14,871 bases of DNA from Bacilli bacterium. Its GTDB lineage: Bacteria > Bacillota_I > Bacilli_A > RF39 > UBA660. Below are positions 550 to 14,871 of this stretch, piece after piece. Location: positions 1 through 14,871 of the forward strand of contig JAQUDY010000009.1 in the NCBI GenBank assembly GCA_028685445.1, written 5' to 3'. The position numbers were made by a program, and so were the translations under genes. Positions within the stretch are counted from its first letter, which is position 1; each line of letters begins with the position of its first letter. A model generated the notes under the pieces. It ran no database searches and had not been told where the DNA came from. It saw only the letters and a list, made by a program, of their open reading frames with translations.

Positions 550-1047
550 TTAATTATTATTTAAAGTTAAAAAATTAAATATAAATAAAATCCAGATACT
601 AAAAGCAAGCGTTAATTTAAATCGACCGTATTCATATAGCGCTGTTCCTTTATCAGTTAATGATAATACTGCTCCTTCTAAGGATAATGGCGGAACTAAA
701 GTTAAAGGAAACATATGACTTAAAATAGCTTCTTCTTCTTTTTTATTTAAATTAAAATGTTTTTTTGAATTTTCTAGTGCTATTTTAGGATGCGTTGTTC
801 CTTTTTTTATTCCTTTAATTTCTCCAAAATCATCATTTAAAAAGAAGTCATGTAAAAGCGCTGCTCTTGTAGCAGATATATAATCTATATTTAATTTTTT
901 AGATAAAATATATGTTTGTTTTGCAACTCTAATTGAATGTTCATATCTAGTTAAACCATGGTGGTTTTCTTTTTTTAGTTTCTTGTAATAATCATTATTG
1001 ATTATTTCATTTGCTATAGAATCAAAAGAAACAATTCCATAATTCAT
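550..1047 (-). CDS. HD-domain protein, probable metal-dependent phosphohydrolase (paralogue 1, hydrophobic tail)
   Basis: A 165-aa HD-superfamily protein of unknown substrate. The putative metal ligands are visible: H37 (in RYEHS), H66-D67 (LLHDFF), H86 (THPK), H111 (ILSHM) and D132 (LTDKG). These sit in the layout of small stand-alone Clostridia/Bacilli HD hydrolases. The reading frame is open 20 codons further upstream, but I place the start at the ATG at 1045-1047. It has a GGAG Shine-Dalgarno 8 nt upstream, and the candidate promoter -10 (1071-1076) lies inside the longer version. It is a diverged duplicate of the neighbouring HD gene. The last 20 residues or so differ: this copy ends in an apolar stretch (about 145-161) rich in F, I and L that could be a membrane anchor, where the paralogue has a basic tail. 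It is probably transcribed alone. The hydrolase fold is well supported; the reaction is unknown. Confidence 0.8.
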   Translation of the reverse strand: MNYGIVSFDSIANEIINNDYYKKLKKENHHGLTRYEHSIRVAKQTYILSKKLNIDYISATRAALLHDFFLNDDFGEIKGIKKGTTHPKIALENSKKHFNLNKKEEEAILSHMFPLTLVPPLSLEGAVLSLTDKGTALYEYGRFKLTLAFSIWILFIFNFLTLNNN

Positions 1048-1070
1048 TTTCATCACTCCAAGACTTAATA

Positions 1071-1079
1071 AGTATAACA
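1071..1079 (-). promoter_or_regulatory. Extended -10 promoter of HD paralogue 1
   Basis: TGT followed by TATACT on the minus strand, with -10 at 1071-1076, about 24 nt before the chosen ATG. No convincing -35 is seen 16-18 nt upstream, so it would depend on the TGn element. The stretch 1048-1153 contains nothing else I can identify; it is AT-rich and has no clear terminator for the upstream HD gene. Confidence 0.45.
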
Positions 1080-1153
1080 TAAATTGGATTAAAAATGTAT
1101 TTTCCACTATTTATATTATATGCTTATTATATTATTTAAGTTAATTATTAATA

Positions 1154-1696
1154 TTAACGAGATTTTATTAATTTTTTGTTTAATTGATTTATTGTATTTT
1201 TTGTTTTTCTAGTGCCTAAAGACAATATATACTCTTGAATCGCTACTCCCTTATCAACTAAGCTAAGAGTTGTTCCTTCTAAAGTTTTTGGTCTTGTAGG
1301 AGTAAGTGGGTACATATGATTTAAGATTGCATCTGCTTCTTTTTCATTTATATTAAAATATTTTTGAGAATTTAATAACGCTTGTTTTGGATGCTCTTTT
1401 GATCTTTTAATAGATTTTATATCTTCGGGAAAGTTATCATTAAAGAAAAAATCATGCAAGAATGCCGCTCTAGTTGCACTTTTATAGTCAAGTCCAAGAG
1501 ACTTAGCTATAATATATGTTCCTTTTGCCACTTTAAAAGAATGTTTTAATCTTTGCGTACCATGGTGAGATTCTAACGATAAGTTCATATATTCTTCACA
1601 ATTAATAAATTCTGCTGCTATATCTTCAAATTCATATTCATCAACAACGAGTAAATCTTTACTTATTGATTCTTCTATTACTATATTTTTTATCAT
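1154..1696 (-). CDS. HD-domain protein, probable metal-dependent phosphohydrolase (paralogue 2)
   Basis: A 180-aa HD-superfamily protein, clearly paralogous to the 165-aa gene next to it. Shared blocks include HHG near residue 44, SATRAA followed by LHDFF, and HP followed by a spaced AL-NS. Putative ligands are H52, H81-D82, H102, H127 and D148. The tail after residue 158 is basic (KTKNTINQLNKKLIKSR) and not hydrophobic. The start is the ATG at 1694-1696, 31 nt after the stop of the upstream ligase. The only purine-rich candidate ribosome site (AAAGGA) is about 20 nt upstream, unusually far, and no better start codon lies between. It is probably cotranscribed with the ligase gene. The substrate cannot be inferred. 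Confidence 0.8.
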   Translation of the reverse strand: MIKNIVIEESISKDLLVVDEYEFEDIAAEFINCEEYMNLSLESHHGTQRLKHSFKVAKGTYIIAKSLGLDYKSATRAAFLHDFFFNDNFPEDIKSIKRSKEHPKQALLNSQKYFNINEKEADAILNHMYPLTPTRPKTLEGTTLSLVDKGVAIQEYILSLGTRKTKNTINQLNKKLIKSR

Positions 1697-1727: not shown

Positions 1728-3476
1728 TTACTTTACATTACGGTAATCAGCTTTTCCTACTTTTGTTACTGGCAATGTTTCTCTGTACTCATAAGCTACA
1801 GGCCATGAATACTTTGCTAAATTATTTTCTGAATGTTTCTTAATCTCTTCTTTTATTTCATCAGTTAATTTATATTCTGATTTTAATACTATAAAAGCTT
1901 TTGCAACCTCTCCTTTATAAGGGTGCGGCGTTCCTACTACAATTGAAGTTAAAACTTTAGGATGATTATTTATAATATTTTCTACATGATTAGGATAAAT
2001 ATTATATCCAGAAGAAATGATCATTCTTTTAATCCTAGATTTAAAGAAAATCACTCCATTTTTATTCATTGCTCCCATATCTCCAGTATGAAGCCAAATT
2101 TTACCATCTTGATGAGTTTTTAAAGTTAACTTTGTTTCTTCTTTTTCGTCTAAATAACCAAGCATAACTGCAGGACTACTTAAACAAATCTCGCCATCTG
2201 TATCATAATATAGGTTCTCATCTGTACCAGGCTTTACTATTTTTACAAAACTATCAGGCCCAGGTATTCCGATTGAGCCAGGAATAAAATCATTTAAAGG
2301 AGTCATTATTGTAGATGCAACACATTCTGTCATTCCCCAGCCAACTCTAATTTCTGCATTACATCCATGTTTTTTCACAAAGTCATTAACTCTTTTTTGT
2401 AATTCTGGGGTTAACATATCTCCACCGCATAAAATAGTTGTTAGAAATTCTAATTCGTTATCTCTTAGCTCAGTATTAAGCAGTGCTTCATATAAAGTTG
2501 GAACTCCAGCAATAAAATTCGGTTTATAAGTTCTTATTAGTTTTCCAAAATCTCTTGCAGTAAATTTAGGGATTATTATACACTTCATGCCTGCTGTTAA
2601 AACTGTATGAAAACAAATACCTAGACCAAAACCATGAAATATTGGCATAATAGATAACATACTTTCTCCTGCTTTAACTGTAGGTGTAACTGATTTATTC
2701 TGTTCAGCAATAGCGTTAAAATTACGGCTAGATAGCATTATTCCTTTAGGAGTTCCAGTTGTTCCGCCACTATATAATATAATAGCTAATTCATCATCTT
2801 TTTTATCTGATTTATTAACATCCATAATAGATTTACCTTCATAGATAAAATCTTTCCACATAATAACGTTGTCTTTTTTCTTTTTTATTTTTATTTTACG
2901 ACCATTAGTTATCCAGTATGCCATAGACGTTATAGAGTTCATACTATCACTAGCTTTAGTAAGAATTATTTTTTTTATTTCAATATTCTTTTGGACTTCT
3001 TCTAATTTTTCATGAACAAAATCCATTGTTAATAAATATTGACTTTTCGCTTTAGTTAAACAAAACTCTATTTCCGTAGAAGATGATAAAGGATGTACCA
3101 TATTTGCTACAGCACCTAACAAATTAAGCGCATAAACTGAAATAATACCCTCTGGAGTATTTGGCATGCAAATTGTTACTACATCATTTTCTTTAACGCC
3201 TATTTTTTGAAAAGATTTTGCGCATCTATTTATTTTTTCTATAAATTCTGCAAAAGTACATTTTTTTCCAAAATATTCATATGCGTAATAACTAGGATAA
3301 AGATTCGCAGCATCTTCTAAATGCTGATAAATTGTTTTTTCAGGATATATTAAACTCTTTGGTATTTTTAGCTCTTCATAGTATTTATACCAAGGCGCCG
3401 AGTCTAAATATTCATAATGAATAGCTTGTGCACTTTGTTTAATACTATCTTTTATTTTACCAAATTTTATTTTCAT
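1728..3476 (-). CDS. AMP-forming acyl-CoA synthetase-like ligase (paralogue A)
   Basis: A 582-aa class I adenylate-forming enzyme of full family length. It would activate a carboxylic acid, probably a fatty acid, with ATP to an acyl-adenylate and then a thioester. Motifs in order: the AMP-binding P-loop YSGGTTGTPKG (235-245), GWGMTE (379-384), HTGD (463-466, ribose-binding Asp), KSRIKRMIISSGYNIYP (479-495, hinge and C-domain), and PVTKVGKADYR with the adenylation lysine K575. No transmembrane segment or signal peptide is evident. A GAGG Shine-Dalgarno lies 5 nt before the ATG. It shares most of its length with the second ligase at 3973-5712, from which ytxH separates it. No carrier-protein gene is nearby, so CoA is the likelier acceptor. 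The acyl substrate is not readable from the sequence. Confidence 0.88.
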   Translation of the reverse strand: MKIKFGKIKDSIKQSAQAIHYEYLDSAPWYKYYEELKIPKSLIYPEKTIYQHLEDAANLYPSYYAYEYFGKKCTFAEFIEKINRCAKSFQKIGVKENDVVTICMPNTPEGIISVYALNLLGAVANMVHPLSSSTEIEFCLTKAKSQYLLTMDFVHEKLEEVQKNIEIKKIILTKASDSMNSITSMAYWITNGRKIKIKKKKDNVIMWKDFIYEGKSIMDVNKSDKKDDELAIILYSGGTTGTPKGIMLSSRNFNAIAEQNKSVTPTVKAGESMLSIMPIFHGFGLGICFHTVLTAGMKCIIIPKFTARDFGKLIRTYKPNFIAGVPTLYEALLNTELRDNELEFLTTILCGGDMLTPELQKRVNDFVKKHGCNAEIRVGWGMTECVASTIMTPLNDFIPGSIGIPGPDSFVKIVKPGTDENLYYDTDGEICLSSPAVMLGYLDEKEETKLTLKTHQDGKIWLHTGDMGAMNKNGVIFFKSRIKRMIISSGYNIYPNHVENIINNHPKVLTSIVVGTPHPYKGEVAKAFIVLKSEYKLTDEIKEEIKKHSENNLAKYSWPVAYEYRETLPVTKVGKADYRNVK

Positions 3477-3972: not shown

Positions 3973-5712
3973 TTACTTTACATTCCGATAATCTGCTTTA
4001 CCTATCTTTGTTTGAGGAAGTGAATCTCTATATTCAATTGATGCTGGAAGCATATATTTAGATAAATTCTTTTTACAATGCTCTTTTAATTCATTATCAA
4101 GTTTACTACTCTTCTTTATGCCTTCTTTTAATACAACAAAAGCTTTAACTACTTCTCCTTTATAAGGATGAGCCTCACCTACAACAATAGAAGTTAATAT
4201 ACTAGGATGAGAATTTAAAACATTTTCAATATAATTTGGATAAACATTATATCCTGATGAAATAATCATTCTTTTAATTCTAGATTTAAAGAAAATCATC
4301 CCATTTTTATCCATGGATCCCATATCCCCGGTATGAAGCCATATATAGCCATCTTCATGTTTTCGTAAAGTGTTAGCTGTTTCTTCCTTATCATCTAAAT
4401 AACCCATCATTACAATTGGACCTCTAATGCATATTTCTCCATCTGTATCAAAATAAACATTTTCTTCTGTTCCAGGTTTTACAATTTTTACATAATTATC
4501 TGGAGATGGAATACCTATACTTCCTGGTAAGAAGTTACCTACCGGAGTAGCAGTTCCAGCGGCTACACATTCTGTCATTCCCCAACCAACTCTTATTTCT
4601 GTTTTACTACCATGACCTTCTAAATATTTATTAACTCTTTTTTGTAATTCTGGAGTTAGCATGTCTCCTCCACTTATAACGTTAGTTACAAATGATAAGC
4701 CATCATCATTTAATTTAGTTTGGATTAAAGCCTCAAATAAAGTTGGTACTCCTACTAAAAAGTTTGGTCTATAAGTTTTAATTAGTTTTCCAAATTCTTC
4801 TGGAGCAAACTTAGGTATAATAATTGCTTTTCCTCCAGCTATTAATAAAGTATGAAAACAAACTGCTAAACCAAAGCCATGAAATATCGGCATAATACTT
4901 AAAATACTACTTCCAGCTGGAACATCCGCAATTGATAAGTTTTGCAAAGCAGAGATATTAATATTGCGGCTACTATGCATAATTCCTTTAGGATTACCTG
5001 TAGTCCCTCCGCTATATAAAATAACAGCAAGTTCAGTATCTTTTTTATCACTTCTTTTTAAAGAGGTTTTCTTTCCTTCATAAATAAAATCTTTCCATAA
5101 AGTAACATTTGATTTATATTTTTCTTCTTTTTTAATTTTTCTTCCTTTGGTCACCCAAAATAATGATGAGATAACCAAAGGCATGCTCTCATTAACCTTT
5201 GTTAAAATAATCTTTTTTAAATTAACATCTTTTTCTATCTTGGTAATTTTATCATAAAGTGCATCTAAAGTTAAAATATAACTACTCTTTGCTTTATTTA
5301 AGCAAAAAGTTATTTCTCCTTCACTTGATAAAGGATGAACCATATTTGCTACTGCTCCAACTAAATTACACGCATAAAACATCGTTATTGCTTCTGGAGT
5401 ATTTGGCATTAAAATCGTAACAATATCATTTTTAGTAACTCCTATATTTATTAAGCTTTGTGCACATCTTATAATCTTTTCATCGAATTCTTGAAAAGTT
5501 GCTTTTTTTCCGAAATATTCATATGCAATATAATCAGGATATTTTATAGCCGTTCTTTCTAATAATTCATATATTGTACACTCAGGATAAACTCCTTTTT
5601 TTGGATAACCTAATTTTGGATAAAATTTTAGCCAAGGGGCTGATGAACTTTGTTCATAACGGACTTTATCTATATTCTTTTTTACTTTAGTTTTAATCTC
5701 TTCTATCTTCAC
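3973..5712 (-). CDS. AMP-forming acyl-CoA synthetase-like ligase (paralogue B)
   Basis: A 579-aa class I adenylate-forming ligase. It has the P-loop YSGGTTGNPKG (233-243), GWGMTE (376-381), HTGD (460-463) and the hinge KSRIKRMIISSGYNVYP. The C-terminal PQTKIGKADYRNVK carries adenylation lysine K572. All key residues are intact, so both copies should be active. The start codon is GTG (5710-5712) with GAGG 7 nt upstream; no in-frame ATG is suitably placed. The gene follows the 76-aa membrane protein by 10 nt and precedes ytxH by 11 nt, so it sits in the sigma-factor operon. The two ligases share even the final KADYRNVK, so they are a recent or conserved duplication. The probable reaction is ATP-dependent fatty-acid activation to acyl-CoA; the substrate is unknown. 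Confidence 0.88.
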   Translation of the reverse strand: MKIEEIKTKVKKNIDKVRYEQSSSAPWLKFYPKLGYPKKGVYPECTIYELLERTAIKYPDYIAYEYFGKKATFQEFDEKIIRCAQSLINIGVTKNDIVTILMPNTPEAITMFYACNLVGAVANMVHPLSSEGEITFCLNKAKSSYILTLDALYDKITKIEKDVNLKKIILTKVNESMPLVISSLFWVTKGRKIKKEEKYKSNVTLWKDFIYEGKKTSLKRSDKKDTELAVILYSGGTTGNPKGIMHSSRNINISALQNLSIADVPAGSSILSIMPIFHGFGLAVCFHTLLIAGGKAIIIPKFAPEEFGKLIKTYRPNFLVGVPTLFEALIQTKLNDDGLSFVTNVISGGDMLTPELQKRVNKYLEGHGSKTEIRVGWGMTECVAAGTATPVGNFLPGSIGIPSPDNYVKIVKPGTEENVYFDTDGEICIRGPIVMMGYLDDKEETANTLRKHEDGYIWLHTGDMGSMDKNGMIFFKSRIKRMIISSGYNVYPNYIENVLNSHPSILTSIVVGEAHPYKGEVVKAFVVLKEGIKKSSKLDNELKEHCKKNLSKYMLPASIEYRDSLPQTKIGKADYRNVK

Positions 5713-6624: not shown

Positions 6625-6711
6625 TGGTGCAGGAGATGGGACTTGAACCCACACAGTATTTCTACCAAAGGTGTTTGAGACCTTCGTGTCTACCACTTCC
6701 ACCACTCCTGC
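6625..6711 (-). tRNA. tRNA-Leu(CAA)
   Basis: An 87-nt cloverleaf on the minus strand. Acceptor stem GCAGGAG/CTCCTGC, discriminator A and a genomically encoded CCA (6625-6627). Anticodon stem AAGGT/ACCTT encloses the loop CTCAAAC, giving anticodon CAA, which reads UUG. The long variable arm marks it as a class II tRNA, as expected for leucine. The T-loop is TTCAAGT. It starts only 9 nt after the scpB stop, so it is probably cut from the scpAB transcript. Confidence 0.95.
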
Positions 6712-12758: not shown

Positions 12759-14051
12759 ATGTATCATTTTATAGGAATAAAAGGAGCTGGGATGAGTGCC
12801 TTAGCTCAAATAATGAAAACTTTAGGTTATGTGGTGCAAGGAAGTGATGTTGAAAAATCATTTTTCACGGAAATAGGTTTAATTGAAAAAAACATTCCAT
12901 TTTTTATTTATAATAAAGATAACATAAAAAAAGATATGTTAATTGTAGTTGGAAACTCAATTAAAGAAGATAATGAAGAATTAATAAAATCTAAAAATTT
13001 AAATTTAAAGATTTTTACATATCAAGAAATGATTGGAAGTTTAATTAAAGATTATAAATCAATCGCCGTTTCTGGTTGTCACGGGAAAACTACTACAACT
13101 GGAATGCTTGCACATGTATTAAATAATACAGTTGGAGCTAACTACTTAATTGGTGATGGAACAGGTAATGCTAACATAAAAAACAATTTATTTGTACTAG
13201 AAGCTTGTGAATATCAAAGACATTTTTTAAGTTATTATCCTTATTATATAATAATAACTAATATAGATTTAGATCATGTTGATTATTTTAAAGATATTGA
13301 AGATGTAAAATCTGCATATCAAGAATTTTCGAACCAAGGACAAAAATTAATAGTCTGGGGAGATGATCAAAACATCCGAGATTTAAATTTGAGCAACGTA
13401 TTATATTATGGTTTTAAAGAAAGTAATGATATTATAGCTAAAAATATTCATTATACTAATTCAGGAACTAAATTTGATGTTTATATTAAAGGAGAATTTT
13501 ATGATCATTTTATTCTTCCTTTTTTTGGAGAACATTTAATACTAAATAGTTTAGCCGTAATAACTGTTTGTTATTTAGAAAATATTGAAAAAGATCAAAT
13601 ACAAAAACAATTACAAACTTATCCTGGTGTAAAAAGAAGATTCTCAGAAGAAATAGTAAAAAACAGTATAATAATTGATGACTATGCCCATCACCCTACC
13701 GAGATAAAAGTAACCTTAGCGGCTGCAAAACAAAAGTATCCAGATAAAAAAATCATAACTATTTTTCAACCTCATACTTTTTCTAGAACTGCTAATTTTT
13801 TAAACGATTTTGCTAACGAATTAAAAATAGCTGATAAAGCTTATATTCTAGATATTCATCAAGCTAGAGAAAAGCAAGAAGATTACCCAGATGTTACTTC
13901 TAATAATTTAATTAAATTAATACCAAATGCCGAGATTATGAATGAGGAAAAATTAAAAGATTTAAAGAAATATGAAAATGGAGTTTTCTTATTTATTGGT
14001 GCTAACGATTTAAGACCGCTAGAAAATAAATTAAAAATATTATTACAATAA
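12759..14051 (+). CDS. murC: UDP-N-acetylmuramate--L-alanine ligase
   Basis: A 430-aa cytoplasmic Mur ligase that adds L-alanine to UDP-MurNAc with ATP, the first step of peptide-stem synthesis. The N-terminal Rossmann block is YHFIGIKGAGMSALAQIM (2-19). The ATP P-loop is GCHGKTTTTGML (106-117). FVLEACEYQRHFL (about 145-157) and TNIDLDHVDYF are typical of Gram-positive MurC, followed by DDYAHHPTEIK in the C-terminal domain. Length matches B. subtilis MurC. AGAGGA lies 7 nt before the ATG. Its presence shows the organism makes peptidoglycan. Confidence 0.97.
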   Translation: MYHFIGIKGAGMSALAQIMKTLGYVVQGSDVEKSFFTEIGLIEKNIPFFIYNKDNIKKDMLIVVGNSIKEDNEELIKSKNLNLKIFTYQEMIGSLIKDYKSIAVSGCHGKTTTTGMLAHVLNNTVGANYLIGDGTGNANIKNNLFVLEACEYQRHFLSYYPYYIIITNIDLDHVDYFKDIEDVKSAYQEFSNQGQKLIVWGDDQNIRDLNLSNVLYYGFKESNDIIAKNIHYTNSGTKFDVYIKGEFYDHFILPFFGEHLILNSLAVITVCYLENIEKDQIQKQLQTYPGVKRRFSEEIVKNSIIIDDYAHHPTEIKVTLAAAKQKYPDKKIITIFQPHTFSRTANFLNDFANELKIADKAYILDIHQAREKQEDYPDVTSNNLIKLIPNAEIMNEEKLKDLKKYENGVFLFIGANDLRPLENKLKILLQ

Positions 14052-14085
14052 AAATAGATAGAGTTACCTATCTATTTTTATATTT
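14051..14085 (+). terminator. Bidirectional terminator shared by murC and the 46-aa gene
   Basis: Perfect 11-bp stem AAAATAGATAG/CTATCTATTTT (14051-14061 with 14068-14078) with the 6-nt loop AGTTAC, ending in a T-rich tail. It begins at the last base of the murC stop. On the minus strand the same stem encodes the last codons and stop-proximal bases of the 46-aa gene and is followed by T-rich sequence, so it can end both convergent transcripts. Confidence 0.8.
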
Positions 14086-14204
14086 GGAATATAATGTATT
14101 TGAGAATCGATTAATTGACTACGATAACTCATTAACATTAAAAGTAAGATGAGGAGGAAATAAAACACAATAACTCCATAATAATCTTTAATCTTTGATA
14201 TCAT
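14064..14204 (-). CDS. 46-aa single-helix membrane peptide under an SOS promoter, divergent from lexA
   Basis: ATG at 14202-14204, TAA at 14064-14066. AGAAGGAG ends 7 nt before the ATG, one of the best ribosome sites in the window. The peptide has a short basic N terminus (MISKIKDYY), one strongly hydrophobic helix (about 9-26, VIVFYFLLILLLMLM) and a 20-residue polar tail beginning SYRSQLIDSQ. The likely topology is N-in with the tail outside. Its promoter carries a LexA box in the spacer, so it should be induced by DNA damage. Position and regulation match yneA (Bacillus) and sosA (Staphylococcus), which encode SOS-induced division inhibitors with an N-terminal TM. This one is shorter and lacks a LysM domain. 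A TisB-like membrane-active toxin is the other reading. I recognise no family. Confidence 0.8.
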   Translation of the reverse strand: MISKIKDYYGVIVFYFLLILLLMLMSYRSQLIDSQIHYIPNIKIDR

Positions 14205-14232
14205 ATTTTCACTCCTTCTTTCTTACGATTAA

Positions 14233-14261
14233 AGCATATCACGAACAATTGTCCGTGTCAA
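14233..14261 (-). promoter_or_regulatory. SOS-controlled promoter of the 46-aa gene
   Basis: Minus strand: perfect -35 TTGACA (14256-14261), a 17-nt spacer and -10 TATGCT (14233-14238) with a TGA extended -10. The LexA box at 14242-14255 lies wholly in the spacer, so bound LexA would block polymerase. The predicted transcript starts about 22 nt before the ATG. Confidence 0.8.
14242..14255. promoter_or_regulatory. LexA (SOS) box 1
   Basis: CGAACAATTGTCCG matches the Gram-positive SOS consensus CGAAC-N4-GTTCG with a single mismatch (GTCCG). It lies between the 46-aa gene and lexA. Confidence 0.85.
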
Positions 14262-14270
14262 TACTAAAAC

Positions 14271-14284
14271 AAAACATTTGTTTG
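14271..14284. promoter_or_regulatory. LexA-like box 2 overlapping the lexA -35
   Basis: AAAACATTTGTTTG keeps the AAC-N4-GTT core with three mismatches to CGAAC-N4-GTTCG. It overlaps the lexA -35 by three bases and starts 29 bp from box 1, close to three helical turns. It would serve lexA autoregulation. Confidence 0.5.
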
Positions 14285-14310
14285 ACATTTTACACTTGCT
14301 ATGTTAATAT
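14282..14310 (+). promoter_or_regulatory. lexA promoter
   Basis: Perfect -35 TTGACA (14282-14287), a 17-nt spacer and TAATAT (14305-14310, 4/6), 18 nt before the lexA ATG. Confidence 0.6.
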
Positions 14311-14327
14311 TATTTTAGGATGTGATG

Positions 14328-14871
14328 ATGTTGAATAGTGATTTAACTAAAAAGCAAGAAGAAGTATTAGTATTCGTTAAAAAATATATTGTTCAAAATG
14401 GATACCCTCCTTCTGTTAGAGAAATTTGTACCGGTTTAAATTTAAGTAGCCCAGCTACTGTACATACTCATTTAAAACAGTTAGAAATAAAAGGTGCTAT
14501 TAAAAAAACGGCTTCTAAATTTAGAACTATTGAAGTTGTTGGAGAAAATGAATTTGTTCCTAAAGATGAAGACGTTGTCAAAGTTCCTCTTTTAGGAAAA
14601 ATAACTGCCGGTTCACCTATAGAAGCAATAGAAAATCCAGATGATTTTTTTGCTCTACCTGCTAGTCTAATTCCTAAAAGAGAGACTATATTTACTTTAA
14701 AAGTTGAAGGTGATAGTATGATTAATGTGGGGATACATGATAGCGATGTAGTTATTGTTCAAAAACAAAAAGTTGCTCGTAATGGTGATATTGTAGTAGC
14801 GATGAATGAAGAAAACGAAGTTACTTTAAAAACTTTTTATAAAGAAAAGGATCATATTAGATTGCAACCTG
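14328..14871 (+). CDS. lexA: SOS repressor LexA (3' end outside window)
   Basis: 181 codons are present and no stop is reached. The N-terminal winged helix covers about 1-65, with GYPPSVREICTGLNLSSPATVHTHL as the recognition region. The self-cleavage site is Ala94-Gly95 (GKITAGSP). The catalytic dyad of the S24 peptidase domain is S130 (EGDSM) and K168 (VTLKTF). All residues for RecA-stimulated autocleavage are intact. I choose the ATG at 14328-14330 because AGGA lies 7 nt upstream; the ATG just before it and a GTG are also in frame. It represses SOS genes, here at least itself and the divergent 46-aa gene. Confidence 0.97.
   Translation, partial: MLNSDLTKKQEEVLVFVKKYIVQNGYPPSVREICTGLNLSSPATVHTHLKQLEIKGAIKKTASKFRTIEVVGENEFVPKDEDVVKVPLLGKITAGSPIEAIENPDDFFALPASLIPKRETIFTLKVEGDSMINVGIHDSDVVIVQKQKVARNGDIVVAMNEENEVTLKTFYKEKDHIRLQP

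What the first reader, a model, noticed from the sequence alone, without database searches (positions are those of the whole stretch)
14064..14261. Minimal SOS-induced membrane peptide divergent from lexA
Seen: a 46-codon ORF with a strong ribosome site, one hydrophobic helix and a promoter (TTGACA-17-TATGCT) whose spacer contains CGAACAATTGTCCG. Known: in Bacillus and Staphylococcus the lexA-divergent SOS genes yneA and sosA encode TM-anchored division inhibitors, and in E. coli tisB encodes a small SOS-induced membrane toxin. Inference: this peptide is a very small analogue, a division checkpoint or depolarising persistence peptide, without LysM. It is short enough to be missed by ordinary gene callers.
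Basis: partly seen in the sequence, partly recalled or inferred. Interest (0 to 1): 0.82.

Follow-up and report, generated by a model that had tools for sequence, protein, structure and literature searches.

The report
SOS-induced membrane micropeptide beside lexA
Next to the gene for the DNA-damage switch LexA, this uncultured bacterium has a tiny conserved membrane protein that is probably switched on by DNA damage to pause cell division, and it belongs to an apparently unnamed family found in its bacterial relatives and in some phage-like DNA.

Summary
Window 14064-14204 (-) encodes a 46-aa single-helix membrane peptide. Its promoter (TTGACA-17-TATGCT) carries a LexA box in the spacer and diverges from lexA. 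The frame is a real, conserved gene. Of 169 distinct lexA upstream regions, 145 hold a divergent 32-60 aa one-helix ORF (median 47 aa), against 18 of 845 shuffles and 5 of 169 on the opposite strand. A second, distal LexA box follows the gene: 131 of 145 loci with it, 1 of 19 without. The lexA-proximal box stays regardless: 139 of 145 and 18 of 19. Close pairs show purifying selection. There is no LysM, and no more than single weak hits to known families. In 83 of 169 loci tkt, sirA or yneF lies nearby, as at the Bacillus yneA locus. Homologues also sit in prophage-like operons and IMG/VR contigs. Best explanation: an SOS-induced division inhibitor working like SosA/YneA, probably on the FtsW-PBP2B septal synthase. 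Expression, topology and target are inferred. It is not a YneA by definition (no LysM). New variant of a known kind.

The parts
14064..14204 (-). 46-aa SOS micropeptide gene: N-terminal basic segment, one hydrophobic helix, polar C-terminal tail
   Evidence: homologues; AlphaFold2 helix 3-36, mean pLDDT 95 and 92 for residues 11-20 and 21-30
14212..14217 (-). ribosome binding site AAGGAG
   Evidence: read
14233..14238 (-). -10 TATGCT of the peptide promoter
14242..14255 (.). distal LexA (SOS) box CGAACAATTGTCCG in the promoter spacer, 1 mismatch
   Evidence: family promoter consensus TTGACA-CGAACAAaTGTTCGTga-TAtaAT; box tally
14256..14261 (-). -35 TTGACA of the peptide promoter
14271..14284 (.). 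lexA's own degenerate LexA box AAAACATTTGTTTG, overlapping the lexA -35 (3 mismatches)
   Evidence: read; proximal box (up to 3 mismatches) in 139 of 145 loci with the peptide and 18 of 19 without
14282..14310 (+). lexA promoter TTGACA-17-TAATAT
14322..14871 (+). lexA, cut by the contig end (start probably ATG 14328, by reading)
   Evidence: TIGR00498 194 bits; PF01726 and PF00717; contig length 14871
14050..14079 (.). 12-bp inverted repeat AAAAATAGATAG-agttac-CTATCTATTTTT between the convergent Mur ligase gene and the peptide gene, probably a shared terminator; it overlaps the last codons of the peptide
   Evidence: read; not flagged by the terminator scan, which asks for 3 G-C pairs

Best explanation
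The gene is an SOS-regulated checkpoint peptide. LexA binds the box inside the promoter spacer and blocks RNA polymerase (inferred). After DNA damage LexA is cleaved and the peptide is made from a short leader with a strong ribosome site. It inserts as one helix, N-terminus inside and a roughly 20-residue tail outside (predicted). There it is proposed to bind the septal wall synthase (FtsW-PBP2B) through the helix and the conserved R-x-x-x-L-[NDE] stretch just outside the membrane, delaying septation until repair is done, as SosA and YneA do. Shown here: gene, promoter and box sequences, conservation, selection, link of box to gene, absence of LysM, and a yneA-like gene neighbourhood in about half the relatives. 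Inferred: induction, topology, target, division arrest, removal by proteolysis.
For: Frame conserved in 145 of 169 lexA loci, most often 47 aa long; nulls 18 of 845 and 5 of 169. In 93 loci, 54 frames match a first profile at E <= 0.001, all on the - strand some 210-320 nt upstream of lexA (the 20 seeds came from these loci, but L051, L055, L036, L054, L041, L044, L040 and L071, at E 1e-16 to 2e-11, were not seeds). Of 78 pairs at 60% or more identity, dN/dS is below 0.5 in 71, 0.51-0.91 in 3 and not computable in 4. Distal box in 131 of 145 with the gene, 1 of 19 without; proximal box in both. recA in 8 of 8 genomes of the genus has a box of the same type (1-2 mismatches) upstream of its -35. 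N-side charge exceeds C-side in 112 of 145, 18 ties. Tkt, SirA or YneF on the same strand in 83 of 169 loci, 73 of them with the peptide; Bacillus order lexA-yneA-yneB-ynzC from locus tags. FtsW/RodA-family genes in 8 of 8 genus genomes. In print: the YneA helix binds FtsW TM7; SosA without LysM inhibits division through its membrane-proximal outer segment.
Against: No functional data. In B. subtilis the YneA helix without LysM localises but does not inhibit, so a short tail must do the work as in SosA, and four loci have 24-28 aa helix-only forms with no tail. The spacing of YneA's critical residues K5, E6, F10, V11, F14 fits the conserved columns best at one anchor, but 11 of 56 spacings (that one included) score as high. 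Conservation shows no significant helical face (p 0.18). Over the whole genus pN/pS is only moderately below a column-shuffle null (0.62 against 0.86; 11 of 500 as low). 19 of 169 loci lack the gene beside lexA, and 20 of 89 genomes gave no profile match at E <= 0.01. No CtpA above cut-off in the window's own draft genome or in two others of the genus. Strict boxes are rarer than the reversed-pattern control in all 8 genus genomes (2 against 8 in G000), so few other SOS genes with strict boxes are seen.
Confidence: 0.72

Rival explanations
1. A TisB-like SOS peptide that depolarises the membrane and promotes dormancy.
For: SOS-type promoter, one short hydrophobic helix, helix-only 24-28 aa forms in four loci.
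Against: Only 5 of 145 peptides have a charged residue in the most hydrophobic 17-mer; inferred leader about 22 nt, with no room for the structured leader known for tisB (recalled); no Rfam match there; the preferred F-Y pair and the R/L/[NDE] juxtamembrane stretch suggest a partner protein.
Confidence: 0.12
2. An SOS-induced adaptor for another membrane process (a protease, a lipid or wall enzyme, or a repair-linked transporter), not the divisome.
For: Neighbours vary (MGDG-synthase-like gene beside 23 of 169 loci); no target is shown.
Against: The place divergent from lexA, with tkt, sirA or yneF nearby in 83 of 169 loci, is that of the division inhibitor yneA.
Confidence: 0.13
3. A chance ORF in a lexA upstream region.
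For: At up to 2 mismatches a LexA-like box is expected by chance somewhere in the window.
Against: Conservation, selection, box-gene linkage and profile hits.
Confidence: 0.02

Closest known systems
SosA (Staphylococcus)
   Same: Beside lexA, SOS-induced, one N-terminal helix, no LysM, outer tail with conserved membrane-proximal part.
   Different: 77 aa against about 47; no sequence comparison could be run because no SosA sequence was fetched.
YneA (Bacillus, Listeria)
   Same: Place divergent from lexA, LexA box, single helix, tkt, sirA or yneF in the neighbourhood of 83 of 169 relatives.
   Different: No LysM, which is essential for YneA's activity; about half its length (recalled); a ynzC query hit none of the 169 upstream regions; yneB was not searched for.
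ChiZ, SidA, DidA: small damage-linked membrane division inhibitors
   Same: Small membrane-bound inhibitors induced by DNA damage (passages; DidA listing).
   Different: Other phyla; ChiZ has LysM; no sequence relation tested.
TisB and DinQ (E. coli)
   Same: Small SOS-regulated membrane peptides (listings; TisB details recalled).
   Different: Those are toxins with antisense RNAs; no structured leader or charged helix seen here, and antisense RNA cannot be judged from DNA.

Membership tests
YneA | Gene divergent from lexA with a LexA box in its promoter | tested here: met
YneA | Single N-terminal transmembrane helix | tested here: met
   hydropathy in 145 relatives; AlphaFold2 helix 3-36; topology by charge only
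YneA | C-terminal extracellular LysM domain | tested here: not met
   46 aa; no LysM match in Pfam or NCBIfam for the window peptide (E up to 1) or for 46 members (E up to 0.01)
YneA | Conserved neighbourhood yneB-ynzC-tkt-sirA-yneF | tested here: inconclusive
   tkt, sirA or yneF in 83 of 169 relatives, not in the window itself; ynzC in none; lexA-yneA-yneB-ynzC order seen, the rest recalled
YneA | Helix residues K5, E6, F10, V11, F14 needed for septal localisation and toxicity | tested here: inconclusive
   best anchor fits, but 11 of 56 spacings, that one included, score as high
YneA | Blocks septal wall synthesis through FtsW | not testable with these tools
   needs expression; FtsW/RodA-family genes present in 8 of 8 genus genomes
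SosA | lexA-adjacent, one helix, outer tail without LysM | tested here: met
   comparison text
SosA | Sequence homology to staphylococcal SosA | not tested
   no SosA sequence was fetched
SosA | Turnover by CtpA through the extreme C-terminus | not testable with these tools
   CtpA-family gene over cut-off in 5 of 8 genus genomes, not in the window's own draft
TisB-type type I toxin | Antisense RNA or structured leader controlling translation | tested here: inconclusive
   inferred leader about 22 nt; no Rfam match there; antisense transcription cannot be seen in DNA
TisB-type type I toxin | Amphipathic helix with charged residues in the membrane part (recalled) | tested here: not met
   charge in the hydrophobic 17-mer in 5 of 145

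The most novel reading that the evidence does not exclude
These are minimal SOS division inhibitors: a bare helix of 24-28 aa in some lineages, a helix plus 20-residue tail in most, that stop the septal wall synthase with no wall-binding domain. Phages and prophages have captured the peptide and express it from early operons to hold host division during their own replication.
Probability: 0.3. Interest if true: 0.8.

Novelty: new variant of a known kind. Interest (0 to 1): 0.62.

Why it matters
It gives a large group of uncultured, small-genome Bacilli a candidate DNA-damage checkpoint. It suggests that the lexA-divergent division-inhibitor slot can be filled by a micropeptide of about 47 aa without a wall-binding domain, and it supplies 145 distinct natural variants, four helix-only forms and several mobile-element homologues. 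Published work finds that the YneA helix binds FtsW but cannot inhibit without LysM, so natural peptides with only a short tail, or none, make it directly testable what a helix alone can do to FtsW.

Tried and rejected
Box as stand-alone evidence: set aside. At 1 mismatch it is unusual in the window (8 of 200 shuffles), but at 2 mismatches such boxes are expected, and strict boxes are not enriched genome-wide.

YneA residue-spacing match: best at one anchor but not significant. Helical face of conservation: not significant.

Homology to the 57-aa lexA-divergent peptides of another family in the class (3 of 5 f11 loci): same place and SOS-like boxes, but profile scores no better than controls, so not claimed.

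The related-loci hit L318 was rejected: it lies inside a 473-aa ORF of a G+C-rich contig. Weak profile matches inside long ORFs are taken as chance.

First filter misses: L188 has a complete 46-aa peptide with hydropathy 1.56, just under the cut of 1.6, and L048, L147, L155, L187 have 24-28 aa forms; none of these five is among the 145. Of 203 loci read, 6 had under 330 nt upstream and 28 were duplicates; 169 were counted. The 203 are the loci fetched, not all lexA-bearing genomes listed.

Searches of phages and plasmids with mobile copies found nothing credible; two viral-contig scans with other members found none.

Full report
What is there. The - strand ORF 14064-14204 encodes 46 aa with an AAGGAG site and a TTGACA-17-TATGCT promoter whose spacer holds CGAACAATTGTCCG. 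lexA begins about 60 bp beyond that -35, on the other strand (TIGR00498 194 bits), and has its own promoter and its own degenerate box over the -35. The - strand gene ends in an inverted repeat shared with a convergent Mur ligase gene. The window is the whole of a contig from a 0.92-Mb draft, 88% complete. Its relatives in the named collection are mostly 'uncultured Bacilli', one of them Candidatus Coprovivens. That the group is RF39 is recalled.

Is it more than chance? One box at 1 mismatch appears in 8 of 200 shuffles of the window, at up to 2 mismatches in 113 of 200. The relatives decide it. lexA was found in 8 of 8 genus genomes, 353 of 386 family genomes and 141 of 146 order genomes, and the best 80 loci came from a named collection. 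I read the 203 loci fetched from these. Six had under 330 nt upstream and 28 were duplicates, which left 169. Controls: 18 of 845 dinucleotide-shuffled regions and 5 of 169 on the opposite strand. Median length is 47 aa and 144 of 145 start with ATG. These loci are related by descent, so the counts are not independent events.

Box and gene travel together. Within 62 nt before the ATG, 130 of 145 have a box with at most 2 mismatches, against 10 of 2900 shuffled. The promoter consensus over 134 loci is TTGACA-CGAACAAaTGTTCGTga-TAtaAT (28 of those box picks lie 54-61 nt from the ATG and may be the lexA-proximal box). A box further than 65 nt from lexA is in 131 of 145 loci with the gene and in 1 of 19 without it, while the lexA-proximal box (up to 3 mismatches) is in 139 of 145 and 18 of 19. 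Five further loci have the box and either a complete peptide that my filter missed (L188) or a helix-only form of 24-28 aa (L048, L147, L155, L187). recA of 8 of 8 genus genomes has the same kind of box, with 1 or 2 mismatches, so the consensus is plausible for this LexA. In G006 the peptide gene, with its own box, lies on another draft contig from lexA, so not at the usual spacing.

Selection. Close pairs have many silent and few replacement differences (for example L166-L167: 13 silent, 1 replacement; L005-L006: 7 and 2). Of 78 pairs, dN/dS is below 0.5 in 71, 0.51 to 0.91 in 3 and not computable in 4. Those pairs were chosen by peptide identity, which favours low replacement rates. Taking 8 genus sequences without such choice, pN/pS is 0.62, against 0.86 (sd 0.16) when alignment columns are shuffled; 11 of 500 shuffles are as low. 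This is weaker, partly because silent sites are near saturation.

Anatomy. The family has a basic start, a helix with a preferred G (90 of 143), F (93 of 145) and Y (93 of 145), then R/K (84 of 145), L/I/M (108 of 145) and N/D/E (116 of 143) just after the helix, and a variable tail, median 21 residues after the most hydrophobic 17-mer. Charge places the N-terminus inside in 112 of 145, with 18 ties. AlphaFold2 gives one helix, residues 3-36, and a disordered end (mean pLDDT 79.6). Of 46 members, no more than one matches any Pfam, NCBIfam or PHROG family at E <= 0.01, and those hits are weak.

Neighbourhood. Upstream of lexA on the peptide's strand, relatives carry transketolase (65 of 169), YneF (17), SirA (12) or an MGDG-synthase-like gene (23); 83 of 169 have at least one of tkt, sirA or yneF. 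A ynzC query hit none. B. pumilus locus tags give lexA, yneA, yneB, ynzC in a row (passages of PMC3896406); that tkt, sirA and yneF follow in B. subtilis is recalled. So in many relatives the peptide occupies the yneA place.

Mobile copies. A profile of the family found matches in 69 of 89 genomes, some strong ones away from lexA. G042, which lacks the gene beside lexA, has one (L288) overlapping the end of a small gene, next to an ORF that looks by eye like a repressor and to a primosomal-type phage protein. G029 and G169 have copies (L289, L306) behind small genes that resemble each other by eye; L289 lies by a DUF6291/PHROG protein. Three IMG/VR contigs carry relatives (L315; L316 and L317), L317 beside an Erf/Rad52-type annealing gene; their hosts are unknown. 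Profile scores are 49.7 (L288), 48.6 (L289), 42.4 (L315), 27.3 (L317) and 22.2 bits (L306); the best of 290 reversed or shuffled peptides reaches 9.2. None was found in the phage or plasmid record collections. That these copies act on the host's division is a guess.

Function. The nearest precedents are SosA and YneA. YneA's helix binds TM7 of FtsW and places a LysM domain over it; without LysM it localises but does not inhibit (PMC13396833: abstract, passages and one section). SosA lacks LysM; residues just outside the membrane are essential, and its extreme C-terminus is proposed as a CtpA signal (PMC6851548, passages). YneA is degraded by CtpA and YlbL (PMC6051672, passages). The new peptides have the SosA layout at about 60% of its length. 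I therefore propose SosA-like inhibition of the septal synthase. FtsW/RodA-family genes are present in 8 of 8 genus genomes, and a CtpA over cut-off in 5 of 8, not in the window's own draft. Direct support for the FtsW target is absent: the YneA residue spacing is not significantly matched and no conserved helical face is significant.

Novelty. Six searches of the held open-access library, for YneA/SosA, small SOS membrane proteins, the yneA operon, RF39 with SOS, prophage division inhibitors and reduced Bacilli genomes (listings only, except the papers named above), showed no description of this family. Subscription papers are mostly not held. I rate it a new variant of a known kind.

Noticed in passing
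L288:573-725 (-), L289, L306, L315, L317: Homologues of the SOS micropeptide in prophage-like operons and IMG/VR contigs; L288, L315 and L317 share the stretch NARFEYLN, which is in none of the 145 lexA-adjacent peptides (8 have NARF).
   Followed up: partly
L048, L147, L155, L187 upstream of lexA: Helix-only versions of 24-28 aa that keep the SOS-type box; the outer tail is missing.
   Followed up: partly
L204, L206, L210 (family f11 of the class): A different 57-aa membrane peptide between lexA and ynzC with SOS-like boxes; not detectably homologous to the window family.
   Followed up: partly
G006:C42:312-502: Same-genus genome in which the peptide gene with its own SOS box lies on a different contig from lexA.
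   Followed up: partly
window 1728-3476 and 3973-5712 (-): Two neighbouring AMP-binding (acyl-CoA synthetase type) paralogues, about 580 aa each.
   Followed up: no
window 550-1107 and 1154-1696 (-): Two adjacent HD-domain paralogues.
   Followed up: no
window 6628-6711 (-): A tRNA gene (Rfam).
   Followed up: no
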